DNA of 56,752 nt from NCBI GenBank assembly GCA_902573585.1, contig CACGKH010000004.1:1-56752 (forward strand), read 5' to 3'. A program made the position numbers and the translations under genes. Positions 2 through 4,624 of this stretch are shown in pieces; the stretch's first letter is position 1, and every line of letters starts with the position of its first letter. The notes under the pieces are model-generated. The model searched no databases and was not told the origin of the DNA. It was given only the letters and a program-made list of their open reading frames with translations. Source of the DNA: an uncultured Pelagibacteraceae bacterium (GTDB lineage Bacteria > Pseudomonadota > Alphaproteobacteria > Pelagibacterales > Pelagibacteraceae).

Positions 2-919
2 GAATTAGCAGCACGATCACATGTTGAAAAAATAGATTGGATTGTTCAAAAAGCTATCGATGATAGTGGACGGAAAATTGACGAAATTGATGCAGTTGCT
101 TCAACTGCGGGTCCAGGTTTAATTGTTTGTTTATCTGTGGGTTTAAGTTTTGGTAAAGCTTTCGCATCTGCTCTAGATAAACCTTTTATAGCTGTTAATC
201 ATCTTGAAGGTCATGCATTGAGTCCAAAACTTAATTCAAAATTAAATTATCCATACTTACTTTTATTAATTTCAGGTGGACACTCACAATTTTTAAATGT
301 CAAAGATCTTGGAAAATATAAAAGACTTGGAACAACTATTGATGATGCGCTAGGTGAGGCTTTTGACAAAACTGCAAAACTTTTAGGAATAGAATTTCCT
401 GGCGGGCCACAAATTGAAATTTTAGCAGAAAAAGGTGATCCAAATAAATATGAATTACCAAAACCAATATTTAATAGAGGTGGATGCAATTTATCATTTG
501 CTGGTCTAAAAACTGCAATTTTAAAAATAACTAAAAATATTAAGACTGAACAAGAAAAATTTGATCTCGCTGCATCTTTTCAAAAAACAATTGAAGAAAT
601 ATTATGCAAAAAGACCAAAATTGCATTTAAAGAATTTGAAAAACAGAATAAGCCAAAAGAAAAAATATTTGTAGTAGCCGGAGGAGTTGCCGCAAATAAA
701 AAAATAAGGTCTATGTTAAAAAATTTGTGTAATGAAGAAAATTATATTTGTGTGTTTCCCCCACTAGAATTGTGTGGTGATAATGGAGCAATGATAGCAA
801 TGGTTGGTTTAGAAAAATATAAATTGAAACAATTTAATGATCTTGATTTTCCTGCTAAGCCTAGATGGCCTTTAGATGAAACTGCAGCCTTTCTTAAAGG
901 AGCAGGAGTAAAATTATGA
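2..919 (+). CDS. tsaD: tRNA N6-threonylcarbamoyladenosine transferase TsaD (5' truncated by window edge)
   Basis: TsaD transfers the threonylcarbamoyl group from TC-AMP to A37 of ANN-decoding tRNAs in the cytoplasm, working with TsaB, TsaE and TsaC. The reading frame is open from base 2 without a start, so about 50 N-terminal residues lie outside the window; the first visible residues (ELAARSHVE) match the family's early region. Visible signatures are VNHLEGHA (metal-binding histidines), ISGGHSQF, the GEAFDK segment, and a C-terminal GDNGAMIA motif. The visible 305 residues plus the missing part fit the usual length of roughly 350. The last seven codons (KGAGVKL) are repeated in divergent form 60 bp downstream. 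The usual alphaproteobacterial follower gpsA is not present; an accessory segment follows instead. Confidence 0.95.
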   Translation, partial: ELAARSHVEKIDWIVQKAIDDSGRKIDEIDAVASTAGPGLIVCLSVGLSFGKAFASALDKPFIAVNHLEGHALSPKLNSKLNYPYLLLLISGGHSQFLNVKDLGKYKRLGTTIDDALGEAFDKTAKLLGIEFPGGPQIEILAEKGDPNKYELPKPIFNRGGCNLSFAGLKTAILKITKNIKTEQEKFDLAASFQKTIEEILCKKTKIAFKEFEKQNKPKEKIFVVAGGVAANKKIRSMLKNLCNEENYICVFPPLELCGDNGAMIAMVGLEKYKLKQFNDLDFPAKPRWPLDETAAFLKGAGVKL

Positions 920-953: not shown

Positions 954-980
954 ATGAAAGGAGCCGGCGTTAAAATTTAA
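954..980 (+). repeat. Duplicated tsaD 3' tail (remnant)
   Basis: ATG-AAA-GGA-GCC-GGC-GTT-AAA-ATT-TAA encodes MKGAGVKI and a stop. It mirrors the end of tsaD at 896-919 (KGAGVKL, stop), with differences mostly at third codon positions. A copy of the same coding tail with synonymous changes suggests the 3' end of a diverged tsaD allele, left behind by recombination or insertion between tsaD and its original follower. Confidence 0.6.
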
Positions 981-1885: not shown

Positions 1886-1894
1886 GATAAATTG

Positions 1895-1939
1895 ATGCAA
1901 TATTGGTTACTTAAACCAACACTTGTGATACATCGATAA
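1895..1939 (+). pseudogene. Remnant of an EVE-domain gene 5' end
   Basis: The 15-codon frame reads MQYWLLKPTLVIHR then stop. Its first seven codons match the start of the intact EVE-domain gene at 4211 (MQYWLMK), with third-base differences, and the match then collapses. This is best read as the truncated head of a second, diverged EVE gene left at an insertion junction. Confidence 0.55.
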
Positions 1940-1958
1940 GACTCCACTGACTCCCACT
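1940..1958. repeat. Short imperfect tandem repeat beside the EVE remnant
   Basis: The sequence gactccact is followed at once by gactcccact. It lies directly after the remnant EVE head and about 80 bp before the first 12-bp-period GGGGTAC pair. Its position suggests a junction or protein-binding array, but function is not known. Confidence 0.35.
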
Positions 1959-2002
1959 AACCTTTACCTTATCTTTACAATTAAAAATGTTGATTAAAGC
2001 TG

Positions 2003-2040
2003 ATTAATAAACGTAAATGTGGGGTACATTGTGGGGTACG
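2003..2040 (+). repeat. Direct repeat, left copy (GGGGTAC tandem)
   Basis: A 38-bp segment matches 4101-4138 at 34 of 38 positions by eye. Each copy contains two GGGGTAC motifs spaced exactly 12 bp apart (here GTGGGGTAC at 2019 and 2031). The two copies bracket the membrane-protein and helicase genes, 2,098 bp apart. This is the layout expected for the ends of an integrated element or for recombination between repeats. Tandem GGGGTAC-like repeats resemble arm-type sites near tyrosine integrases, which is inference only. Confidence 0.8.
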
Positions 2041-2071
2041 ATTATTTGTGCTAAATTTATTTTAATATCAG

Positions 2072-2732
2072 ATGAATTGGATAATTAGACAAATTGCAAA
2101 AATTACCCTAATAGGAAAATTAGTCGAAAAAACTAGGACCCAAAGTTCCAGTTATATTTATTGTTATATCATTAATATTTGCTGCGTTTTATATACCTTA
2201 CGAGTATGAAAATTTTTTAGAATTTAGAACTAAATATCCCGATGATAAAATTGGATTAATATTAAACTTAGCTAGACCAATTATAATAAATTTAATTTTA
2301 ATTATTTTTATAATTTCTGCCTTTAGCGCTGAAAAAGAAAGAAAAAAACGAATAGAAAGAGAAGAAGCTGAAAGACAAAGAAAAGAAGCAGAAGCTTTGG
2401 CTAGAAAAGAAGAGGCTATGAGAAAACTTGATGAGTTAAAAAAATCACCTGTGGGCAAAGCAACAGGAATAGTAGCAACTAAAGAAGGAATTGGTGCAAT
2501 AGGTGGTGGAGCTATTGGAGCTGCATTAGGAGGTTCTCTTGGTGTTGCAGGAAAAATAGTTGGTATAGGTGTTGCTCTTAATGGAGGAATAGTTTTAGCA
2601 GGTATTGGCGCTGTTGTAGGATTTCTTGGTGTAAAAGCATTTAAAAAAAATAAAACTGAAAAAGCTGAACATCAAAAAATAAAAGATTATGGAGAAAAAA
2701 TAAATAATGAGACAAGAAATAAGAACAAATGA
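2072..2732 (+). pseudogene. Membrane protein with coiled coil and glycine-rich zipper, +1 frameshift near its start
   Basis: No known family recognised. An ATG at 2072 opens a frame (MNWIIRQIAKITLIGKLVEK) that must move by one base in the run of six A at 2127-2132 to join the long downstream frame (LGPKVPVIF...). Joined, it makes about 219 residues: a first membrane segment (VPVIFIVISLIFAAFYIP), a second (ARPIIINLILIIFIISAF), a charged coiled coil rich in EKER/EAERQRKEAEA, then a Gly/Ala/Val/Ile stretch with IGAIGGGAIGAALGGSLG resembling a glycine zipper, and a lysine-rich tail. Without the shift no ATG/GTG start exists before the TTG at 2397, which lies inside the coiled coil and would drop both first helices. 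It precedes the helicase inside the direct repeats. It could be a pseudogene, or intact with a sequence error. Confidence 0.5.
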
Positions 2733-2797
2733 TTGAGGTTTTAATCATACTTGAATTATCATTTTTAACTTACAAATTATTATCTGATTAAATTAAT

Positions 2798-4105
2798 ATG
2801 AACTACGTCACTCAATTTGACTTAGGTACTGTACTTCCTAAAAATTTTTATGAATCAAAACAATTTAAACAATTAAGATCTAGTTTAGAAAGCTCAAAAC
2901 AATCATATTTCTTGACAGGTAAAGCAGGTACAGGCAAGTCAACTTTCGTAGAATATTTTAGGCTAAACACTAAAAAAAATGTGATGATACTTGCCTATAC
3001 CGGTATAGTTTCAATCAAATGTAGAGGTAGAACAATACATTCTTTCTTTGGATATCCTCATCACATATTGAAAAGAAAAGATTGTAAAATTTTACGTAAA
3101 AGAGATTTTTTGAAATCCTTGAATACTCTAATCATCGATGAAGTTTCAATGGTTAACCCAAATTTAATGGATGCAATAGATAGATCCTTAAAAGTTAATC
3201 GAGAAAATGACTTACCATTCGGCGGTGTTCAAATGTTGTTTGTTGGTGATGTATTTCAATTATCACCTATTGCAAAAGGTAAAGAAAAAGAAGTTTTGGA
3301 CAAAATGTATCCAGAAGGAAATTTTTTTTATAATTCAAAATGGTTTAAAATACTGAACCCAAAGAGAATTGAATTTGAAAAAATATTTAGACAAAAAGAT
3401 ACTCAATTTATTCAAAAATTAGAAAATATAAGAAGAAATCAAATAACAAATGATGTTTTGGATTATTTCAAAAATAGAGTTACTGGAGAACAAGAACTAA
3501 AAGATGGTTTAGTCTTGCTAGCTCCAACAAATAGAAAAACATTTGCTGTTAATCATAAAAAACTTCAAAGTATTAATTCTCGTGAATTTTCATATTTAGG
3601 AAAAGTTACTGGTGCATTTAAACCTGGTGATATGATGAGTGAAAAAAATCTGAAACTTAAAGTTGGAGCTCAAATAATGTTAACAAAAAATGACCCCAAC
3701 GAAAGATGGGTGAATGGCACAATAGGTTTTGTTGATAAATTAGAAAAAGATAAAATTTTTGTAAAAGTTGGAAAAAGATCTTTTCAAGTCGAAAAAGTTT
3801 TATGGGAAAAATATGATTATAATCTTAAAGACGGTAAGTTTGAACCAAAAGTAATTGGTACTTTTGAACAATATCCAATAAAATTATGCTGGGCTGCAAC
3901 TATACATAAATGTCAGGGTCAAACTTTTGAGAAAGCTATAATTGATCTTGATACTGGTGCATTTGCGCATGGCATGACTTATGTTGCATTAAGTAGAGTC
4001 AAATCATTGGATGGTCTATATTTAATTAGATCAATAAAATTAAGTGACATTAGATTTGATAAAAGAATATATAATTTTCAAAAAACAGTTGAGCTTTTTA
4101 ATTAA
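2798..4105 (+). CDS. Pif1/RecD-like SF1 helicase (accessory)
   Basis: This 435-residue ATPase of superfamily 1B should unwind DNA 5' to 3'. Motifs in order: Walker A GKAGTGKSTF near residue 41, AYTGIVSIKCRGRTIHSFF (motif Ia region), Walker B LIIDEVSMV near 112, GDVFQLSPI (motif III) near 150, APTNRK near 240, and the C-terminal IHKCQGQTFEKAIIDL with YVALSRVKSLDGLYL (motifs V/VI). Length fits the compact bacterial Pif1-like group, shorter than RecD2. No nuclease or extra domain is visible. It lies within the direct repeats, and its stop codon falls inside the right copy, so it appears to be element cargo. A role in element maintenance, recombination or defence cannot be decided from sequence. 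Confidence 0.85.
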   Translation: MNYVTQFDLGTVLPKNFYESKQFKQLRSSLESSKQSYFLTGKAGTGKSTFVEYFRLNTKKNVMILAYTGIVSIKCRGRTIHSFFGYPHHILKRKDCKILRKRDFLKSLNTLIIDEVSMVNPNLMDAIDRSLKVNRENDLPFGGVQMLFVGDVFQLSPIAKGKEKEVLDKMYPEGNFFYNSKWFKILNPKRIEFEKIFRQKDTQFIQKLENIRRNQITNDVLDYFKNRVTGEQELKDGLVLLAPTNRKTFAVNHKKLQSINSREFSYLGKVTGAFKPGDMMSEKNLKLKVGAQIMLTKNDPNERWVNGTIGFVDKLEKDKIFVKVGKRSFQVEKVLWEKYDYNLKDGKFEPKVIGTFEQYPIKLCWAATIHKCQGQTFEKAIIDLDTGAFAHGMTYVALSRVKSLDGLYLIRSIKLSDIRFDKRIYNFQKTVELFN

Positions 4106-4138
4106 TAAATTTAAATGCGGGGTACGTTGTGGGGTACG
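4101..4138 (+). repeat. Direct repeat, right copy (GGGGTAC tandem)
   Basis: Right-hand partner of 2003-2040. GCGGGGTAC at 4117 and GTGGGGTAC at 4129 keep the 12-bp period. The copy begins at the helicase stop codon and ends about 70 bp before the intact EVE gene. Confidence 0.8.
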
Positions 4139-4210
4139 TGTTTTATAAAAATGGCGCAAAACGAAATGAAGATGAGTCAAAAAATAAGTAAACATTGGAG
4201 AAACAATTAG

Positions 4211-4624
4211 ATGCAGTACTGGTTAATGAAATCTGAACCAGATGTTTGGTCAATAGATCAACAAAAAAAAGCTGGAAAGAAAGGTGCATCATGGGATGGA
4301 GTAAGAAATTATCAGGCGGCAAAAAATTTAAAAACAATGAAGAAAGGTGATCAATGTTTTTTTTATCATTCAAATATTGGTAAAGAAATCGTCGGCATTG
4401 TAGAGGTGATAAAAGAGTATTACTTGGATAAAACAGACCAATCTGGTCGGTTTGTGGCTGTTAATGTAAAATTTATCAAAAAGCTAAAAAAACCTATAAC
4501 TCTTGAAGAAATTAAAAAAAATAAGCAATTAAGCCACTTATCATTAATTAAGCAAAGTAGATTATCTGTAATGCCAGTGGACTCTAAAAGCTGGAAAATT
4601 TTAAATAAGATAGGTAAGATTTAA
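4211..4624 (+). CDS. EVE-domain protein (THYN1/DUF55 family)
   Basis: A 137-residue single-domain protein of the EVE family, related to PUA and YTH folds, which bind modified bases in RNA or DNA. The N-terminal [17 protein letters not shown] and the following [13 protein letters not shown], then [21 protein letters not shown], are the hallmark segments forming the base pocket. In some bacteria EVE domains are fused to modification-dependent restriction enzymes, but the stand-alone form is a common alphaproteobacterial housekeeping gene whose substrate is unproven. The gene is followed after 4 bp by acsA, so the two are probably cotranscribed. A truncated relative of its first codons lies at 1895, on the other side of the direct-repeat element. 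Confidence 0.9.

What the first reader, a model, noticed from the sequence alone, without database searches (positions are those of the whole stretch)
2003..4138. Integrase-less 2.1-kb element bounded by 38-bp GGGGTAC direct repeats
Two 38-bp imperfect direct repeats (34/38), each with a 12-bp-spaced GGGGTAC pair, bracket exactly two genes. No integrase, transposase or tRNA target is found inside. It may be a satellite-like mobile unit moved by an enzyme encoded elsewhere, or a scar of a larger island.
Basis: partly seen in the sequence, partly recalled or inferred. Interest (0 to 1): 0.65.

Follow-up and report, generated by a model that had tools for sequence, protein, structure and literature searches.

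The report
Integrase-less SAR11 islands with phage-type ends
In SAR11 ocean bacteria, small gene islands, several of them carrying DNA restriction or methylation genes, sit at one exact chromosomal site and have the DNA ends of a phage-type integrating element but no integrase gene, so an enzyme from outside probably moves them.

Summary
The repeats are real: 38 bp, 34/38 identical, at 2003-2040 and 4101-4138. They are not the ends of the element. They hold tandem 12-bp site pairs inside an integrated element whose ends are two copies of the 5' start of an EVE-domain gene (1895-1915, 4211-4231), in the tsaD-EVE interval. The same left end spans 114-148 bp in 12 of 397 genomes of the family, in six genera. 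Geometry is fixed: left pair 123 bp after the displaced ATG in 12 of 13 left ends; right pair 93-95 bp before the EVE ATG in the 9 measured. Cargo varies; 5 of 11 readable elements carry restriction or methylase genes, this one a Pif1-like helicase. No recombinase was recognised. Pair-core-pair order, orientation and 12-bp spacing match the annotated attP of satellite phage P4, where the integrase gene follows; here cargo follows. The window and another genus share 91.6% DNA identity over 870 bp between flanks of 65% and 72%: horizontal transfer. Two 218-220-bp versions have one pair and no cargo. Best reading: non-autonomous islands with P4-type att sites, moved in trans by an unidentified integrase. 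No helper was found and movement was not observed.

The parts
137..919 (+). tsaD (3' part); the gene that normally abuts EVE. In this window a glycosyltransferase-like gene (992-1885) lies between it and the element
   Evidence: ORF; used as tsaD query
1895..1915 (+). left copy of the core (attL): displaced EVE start ATGCAATATTGGTTACTTAAA
   Evidence: sequence; alignment of 13 left ends
1916..2017 (+). left arm, conserved between elements of six genera
   Evidence: DNA search over 397 genomes; alignment
2018..2039 (+). left tandem site pair, two TGTGGGGTAC at 12-bp period; proposed integrase arm-type sites
   Evidence: +123 from the displaced ATG; pattern specificity; P4 comparison
2072..2732 (+). 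cargo gene 1: membrane-protein-like, frame shifted near its start in this window, intact in G021; no Pfam family
2798..4105 (+). cargo gene 2: Pif1/Dda-like helicase, 435 aa
   Evidence: Pfam PIF1 4.4e-28; PHROG Dda-like helicase 3.2e-70
4116..4137 (+). right tandem site pair, TGCGGGGTAC and TGTGGGGTAC, same direction as the left pair
   Evidence: -95 from the EVE ATG
4138..4210 (+). right arm, ending TTGGAGAAACAATTAG before the EVE ATG (possible new ribosome-binding stretch, inferred)
   Evidence: alignment of 10 right ends
4211..4231 (+). right copy of the core (attR): functional EVE start
4211..4624 (+). EVE-domain gene, the integration target
   Evidence: Pfam EVE 1.8e-46

Best explanation
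The window holds an integrated, non-autonomous mobile island of about 2.3 kb (1895-4210). A tyrosine integrase of the P4 type (Arm-DNA-bind_3 domain), supplied in trans, recombines the island's attP with attB, the first codons of the EVE-domain gene that normally abuts tsaD. Integration leaves a displaced EVE start on the left (attL); on the right the island supplies a ribosome-binding-like stretch, start codon and first codons, so EVE stays readable (attR). The tandem TGYRKRGYAC pairs on both sides of the core are the arm-type integrase sites. In P4 the integrase gene follows the second pair; in this family exchangeable cargo stands there. Shown: recurrent site-specific ends, constant geometry, variable cargo, no recognised recombinase, transfer between genera. 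Inferred: that the enzyme is P4-type, that it acts in trans, excision, and that the pairs bind integrase.
For: Same left end in 12 of 397 genomes (114-148 of 148 bp) in six genera, plus an 86-bp piece in G083 and L050. Left pair at +123 in 12 of 13 left ends; right pair at -95 in 7, -94 in 1 and -93 in 1 of the 9 right ends measured. Pair consensus: 12 matches in 397 genomes, all next to EVE-start cores, reversed control 0; 11 matches in 1.21 Mb of SAR11 loci, all at elements. Right EVE copies begin ATGAAGTACTGGTTA in 8 of 10, empty-site EVE genes in 0 of 28, while left copies are host-variable up to TGGTTAyTnAAA and conserved after it. Window versus G021: 91.6% over 870 bp between flanks of 65.4% and 71.8%. 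P4 attP: tandem 12-bp pairs on both sides of the core, same direction, gaps 53 and 112 bp, then the integrase gene; here gaps 73 and 102 bp, then cargo. Tandem 10-13-bp repeats near the start of P4-type integrase genes: 20 of 29, controls 3, 2 and 0 of 29. Scanned cargo proteins include no recombinase, and tblastn of four SAR11 P4-type integrases hits none of the EVE loci.
Against: No helper integrase with this core or pair was found. P4-type integrases occur in only 4 of 397 family genomes, none seen at this site. Many genomes are incomplete (the window's own is 71%), and the general integrase family PF00589 was searched in only 6 genomes, so non-P4 helpers are hardly tested. The motif RKRGYAY is not general for P4-type integrases: exact pairs in 1 of 29, relaxed in 4 of 29 (shuffle mean 0.49, maximum 3). 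Several copies are degraded (G767, G083, L037, right ends of G719 and L050), as expected for relics too. No circular or attP-junction form was found in viral contigs.
Confidence: 0.68

Rival explanations
1. Decayed islands: each was once an autonomous P4-type element that lost its integrase after integration (CIME-like relics) and no longer moves.
For: No integrase in any readable element; degraded arms in G767, G083, L037 and on the right of G719 and L050; the first cargo gene of the window is frameshifted; single-pair versions can arise by recombination between the two 38-bp repeats.
Against: Pairs and spacing are intact at both ends in several elements (W, G692, G021, G180), cargo starts soon after the left pair in different elements with no integrase remnant recognised, and a 91.6% identical block in another genus points to fairly recent movement. 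Independent loss in every element is less simple than one integrase-less lineage.
Confidence: 0.2
2. Homologous recombination in a gene-exchange hotspot: the genes moved with flanking core DNA, without a site-specific enzyme.
For: The tsaD-EVE gap carries many inserts without these ends: of 53 loci 17 have 643-6805 bp, and in the named-genome set only L050 shows a clear left end and L037 a degenerate one.
Against: The shared block with G021 starts at the core and the flanks are only 65% and 72% identical; duplicated EVE starts, fixed pair distances and the switch between host-type and element-type sequence inside the core are not expected.
Confidence: 0.06
3. The tandem pairs are the recombination sites themselves, of a cassette system in which genes are inserted between two pairs on a fixed scaffold (integron-like).
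For: Two cargo-less copies of 218 and 220 bp have one pair joining left and right arm (G042, G054); in the other elements cargo lies between pairs.
Against: No pair-cargo-pair-cargo-pair array was seen. In G046 two neighbouring pairs are separated by a core and a left arm. The one clear transfer block includes core and left arm, not only cargo.
Confidence: 0.06

Closest known systems
Satellite phage P4 and other elements with Arm-DNA-bind_3 (P4-type) tyrosine integrases
   Same: attP with tandem 12-bp arm-site pairs in the same direction on both sides of a core, at similar distances (P4: 53 and 112 bp; here 73 and 102 bp)
   Different: No integrase gene after the second pair; none of P4's other genes were recognised in the cargo; target is the 5' end of an EVE gene; the arm motif differs in part.
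CIME (cis-mobilizable element)
   Same: attL and attR kept, integration and transfer genes missing (definition from a passage of PMC5704250)
   Different: CIMEs are described as decay products of ICEs or IMEs; here a multi-genus family shares one integrase-less architecture with different cargo, and no ICE or IME remnant was recognised.
dusA-associated genomic islands
   Same: Insert at the 5' end of a coding gene and replace that end with island sequence (passages of PMC4482086)
   Different: They encode their integrase; target is dusA rather than EVE.
Defence hotspots of P2-like phages and P4-like satellites
   Same: Exchangeable antiviral genes on P4-related elements (abstract start of PMC9122126)
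   Different: Here no satellite or phage genes, and several cargoes are not defence genes.
Tycheposons
   Same: Cargo-carrying islands of streamlined aquatic bacteria
   Different: Described with tRNA borders, a tyrosine recombinase and 4-200 kb length (passages of PMC10872708); not so here.

Membership tests
P4-type integrase element | Core sequence repeated at both ends of the insert | tested here: met
   EVE start at 1895-1915 and 4211-4231; same in other elements
P4-type integrase element | Tandem arm-type sites on both sides of the core | tested here: met
   Geometry; P4 annotation. Binding itself not tested
P4-type integrase element | Integrase gene (PF13356 + PF00589) in the element | tested here: not met
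   No such hit among scanned cargo or by tblastn
P4-like phage satellite | Satellite genes such as alpha primase, psu, sid, delta | tested here: not met
   Not recognised among Pfam-scanned cargo proteins; no dedicated search was made
CIME | attL and attR retained, integration and transfer genes absent | tested here: met
CIME | Derived by decay of an ICE or IME | tested here: inconclusive
   No integrase or transfer-gene remnant recognised; origin unknown
CIME | Tandem accretion at the att site | tested here: inconclusive
   G046 has a second pair 84 bp upstream of its left core, but the sequence there is unlike other right arms
Integron gene cassette | attC sites with inverted-repeat structure and an integron integrase | not tested
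   Sites here are direct tandem pairs; no IntI search beyond
Transposon or MITE | Terminal inverted repeats and varied target sites | tested here: not met
   None of the 25 longest inverted-repeat pairs shown (of 69) joins the two ends; insert site is the EVE start except for the G083 fragment
Tycheposon | tRNA border and tyrosine recombinase in the island | tested here: not met
   No tRNA near; no recombinase

The most novel reading that the evidence does not exclude
SAR11 hosts a dedicated class of integrase-free carrier islands: a minimal attP (two arm pairs and an EVE-start core) that transports interchangeable, often restriction-modification, cargo between genera by parasitising a P4-type integrase of an unknown visitor (phage, satellite or ICE), with cargo swapped by recombination at the repeated arm pairs.
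Probability: 0.42. Interest if true: 0.75.

Novelty: new variant of a known kind. Interest (0 to 1): 0.62.

Why it matters
SAR11 genomes are streamlined (recalled), and recognisable P4-type integrases are rare in them (4 of 397 genomes), so how they gain and lose defence genes is unclear. A recurrent, precisely defined insertion site with full attachment sites but no enzyme would explain part of that turnover, gives a DNA signature for finding such islands, and predicts a trans-acting integrase that can be searched for and tested.

Tried and rejected
Considered and set aside: target-site duplication of a transposon (the repeats are 93-123 bp inside the real ends); a dispersed repeat; a tRNA target; an Xer-only mechanism, because arm pairs are not part of Xer sites (recalled).

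Searches that led nowhere: viral-contig scans for the left arm, the attP junction and the helicase (one stretch, not confirmed); four viral hits to GGGGTAC pairs and three to the right-arm end, all in unrelated context by eye (ORFs listed only for L201); viral relatives of SAR11 P4-type integrases (103 pattern stretches, none confirmed); phage and plasmid records for the left end. Helicase relatives exist in 523 phage records, all under 60% identity; they do not point to a source.

Weak ends: by local alignment the left ends of L037 (AG-325-C03) and G054 score above all 500 shuffles; of the right ends tried, L025 does, while L010 (19 of 500 shuffles as good), L050 (171) and G767 (479) do not.

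Rows dropped: in the integrase test, 5 of the 30 loci (L175, L186, L192, L195, L200) were left out for short frames and 4 SAR11 integrases added, giving 29; L177 and L191 are near-identical copies in one genome. The shuffles there keep base composition only. In one search, 28 of the 30 short-gap loci were used (L009 and L041 left out); two of the 28 rows start one codon late. Of 33 genomes matching, 20 had only matches of 43 bp or less (mostly the EVE start or AT-rich stretches) and are not counted; G054, one of these 20, was recognised through its pair. G054's left distance is circular (its left end was placed from the pair) and is not counted.

Papers: only search listings, abstract starts and the passages named were seen. 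No description of these SAR11 elements appeared in the listings of nine paper searches; that is not proof of absence.

Full report
WHAT IS THERE. All four GGGGTAC heptamers of the window are in them. Reading the surroundings showed that the EVE-domain gene start at 4211 has a displaced second copy at 1895, and that the tail of tsaD (ending at 919) has a diverged second copy at 954-980. The window's best EVE relatives are Pelagibacteraceae records; the genome tool gives its family no name, so 'family' below means the tool's group f1, which I take to be that family.

EMPTY SITES AND A HOTSPOT. Of the 80 EVE loci fetched, 55 (L003-L057) were examined as SAR11; tsaD and EVE could both be placed in 53. 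Gaps: 30 of 13 bp or less, 1 of 36 bp, 5 of 102-121 bp, 17 of 643-6805 bp. The empty junction is common, and the gap is a hotspot for several kinds of insert, most without the ends described here.

THE ELEMENT FAMILY. The insert in L050 (AG-426-P23) begins with the same displaced EVE start and left arm, but its pair reads ATAGCAC instead of GGGGTAC, at the same spacing. A DNA search with window 1893-2040 over 397 family genomes gave 33 genomes with matches. Twelve span 114-148 bp (G000, G692, G021, G042, G180, G046, G719, G649, G014, G659, G688, G767) and one spans 86 bp (G083); the other 20 have 43 bp or less. The twelve belong to six genus labels (g1, g3, g4, g6, g7, g14). In 9 of the 12 the left end lies within 30 bp of the tsaD end; in the window tsaD ends 976 bp upstream, with a glycosyltransferase-like gene between; G046 and G649 showed no tsaD match in the stretch fetched. 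G083's fragment has neither tsaD nor EVE nearby.

GEOMETRY. From the displaced ATG, the left pair starts at +123 in 12 of 13 left ends (the twelve genomes plus L050, allowing up to 2 changes from the consensus as found); G767, whose arm has a deletion, gave none. From the EVE ATG, the right pair starts at -95 in W, G692, G021, G180, G649, G688 and G054, -94 in G659 and -93 in G042, the 9 measured. For G719, G046, L050 and G767 one search did not measure the right end; the stricter scan showed no pair before EVE there. G014 is cut by the contig end. Pair sequences vary (GGGG, ATAG, GTAG, AGGG types), even between the two ends of one element (G021), so the constant spacing is informative.

SPECIFICITY OF THE PAIR. 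TGYRKRGYAC-NN-YGYRKRGYRC has 12 exact matches in 397 genomes, in 7 of them; by position all 12 lie next to an EVE-start core, and the reversed control pattern has none. In 71 SAR11 loci (1.21 Mb) it occurs 11 times, again only there.

SITE-SPECIFIC RECOMBINATION. Left copies of the EVE start differ between hosts up to TGGTTAyTnAAA and are conserved after it. Right copies are nearly uniform before it (ATGAAGTACTGGTTA in 8 of 10, against 0 of 28 empty-site EVE genes) and host-variable after it. That is the pattern expected if strand exchange took place within this stretch. Most right arms end in GGAGAAACAATTAG before the ATG, which could give EVE a start signal where it normally follows directly on tsaD; this role is inferred.

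HORIZONTAL TRANSFER. Against G021, from another genus, the window is 91.6% identical over 870 bp (1884-2728), between 65.4% on the tsaD side and 71.8% on the EVE-acs side. By protein, the membrane gene is 95% identical while TsaD, EVE and the downstream synthetase are 55%, 71% and 73%. The second cargo gene differs.

CARGO. Window: frameshifted membrane-protein gene and Pif1-like helicase. G692: N6-methylase and type I specificity-like protein. G046: C5-methylase, type II restriction-enzyme-like protein, Vsr. G719: C5-methylase and three proteins without Pfam family. G688: two DNA methylases, a PLD-like protein below its cut-off, one unknown. L050: type IIG enzyme, DEAD-type helicase, T5orf172 protein; a further 200-aa frame there was not scanned. 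G649: endonuclease/exonuclease-family protein and two unknowns. G659 and G767: autotransporters. G021 and G180: mostly unknown. So 5 of 11 elements with readable cargo carry restriction or methylase genes. G042 and G054 are cargo-less, 218 and 220 bp, with one pair. No scanned protein is a recombinase (two large or restriction proteins were scanned in PADLOC only), and tblastn with four SAR11 P4-type integrases finds none in the EVE loci. The six genomes G000, G021, G042, G046, G180 and that of L050 each have a Phage_integrase match in a 309-325-aa frame; G042 has a second one of 456 aa by tRNA-Lys.

COMPARISON WITH P4. The P4 record annotates six attP arm repeats of 12 bp, four of them as tandem pairs at 3942-3965 and 4151-4174 around the core 4078-4097, and the integrase gene at 2607-3926. 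On the minus strand the units are GTGGGGGCACAA, AAGGGGGCATAT, core, TTGGGGGCATAA, TTGGGGGCATCT, all in one direction: pair, 53 bp, core, 112 bp, pair, integrase gene. In the window, with ATG to AAA (21 bp) as core and the two ends joined on paper: pair, 73 bp, core, 102 bp, pair, cargo. As a wider test, tandem repeats of period 10-13 in the 220 bp before and first 30 nt of P4-type integrase frames were significant (p at most 0.05) in 20 of 29 genes, against 3, 2 and 0 of 29 in three control stretches of the same loci. The motif RKRGYAY itself is not general: exact pairs in 1 of 29, relaxed in 4 of 29. Four of 397 family genomes have an Arm-DNA-bind_3 match, three above the cut-off: beside tRNA-Lys, tRNA-Thr, tRNA-Pro and, in one, no tRNA found; Pfam did not confirm the domain in the fourth at 0.001. 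Their best upstream tandem repeats include TGTATAG (p 0.06), TTTGTAGTCAA and TTGGGAGT. They are candidate helpers by class only.

CONCLUSION AND LIMITS. These look like non-autonomous islands with complete P4-type attachment sites in which cargo stands where the integrase gene would be. The enzyme in trans is inferred; no helper with this core or pair was found, but many genomes are incomplete and PF00589 was searched in only six genomes. Decay of once autonomous islands remains possible, and some copies are degraded.

Noticed in passing
window 954-980 and 992-1885: A second, diverged copy of the tsaD tail (ending KGAGVKI) is followed by a glycosyltransferase-like gene; a 41% identical gene lies alone between tsaD and EVE in L046. 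This looks like a separate, earlier insert in the same hotspot.
   Followed up: partly
window 2072-2732: The first cargo gene is frameshifted near its start relative to the intact G021 gene; sequencing error or real loss cannot be told apart.
   Followed up: partly
L151 13267-13352: G083 carries an 86-bp piece of the left end away from tsaD and EVE; possibly a secondary site or a relic.
   Followed up: partly
L098 8904-8925: G046 has an extra pair 84 bp upstream of its left core, followed by a sequence unlike other right arms; possibly a tandem element of another subtype.
   Followed up: partly
L096 (G021), left end: Four tandem 12-bp units (one with a changed base) instead of two.
   Followed up: no
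L031, L033, L048: The 121-bp tsaD-EVE gap holds a very small, basic reading frame that is conserved between these loci (by eye).
   Followed up: no
L005, L025, L039, L018, L023, L034, L043, L045: Other inserts in the tsaD-EVE gap without these ends; L045 has a C5-methylase-like start similar to G046 cargo by eye.
   Followed up: no
L173, L174, L190, L177, L191 and others: Many alphaproteobacterial P4-type integrase genes have a tandem G-rich repeat of 11-13-bp period next to their start, a possible general marker of their arm sites.
   Followed up: partly
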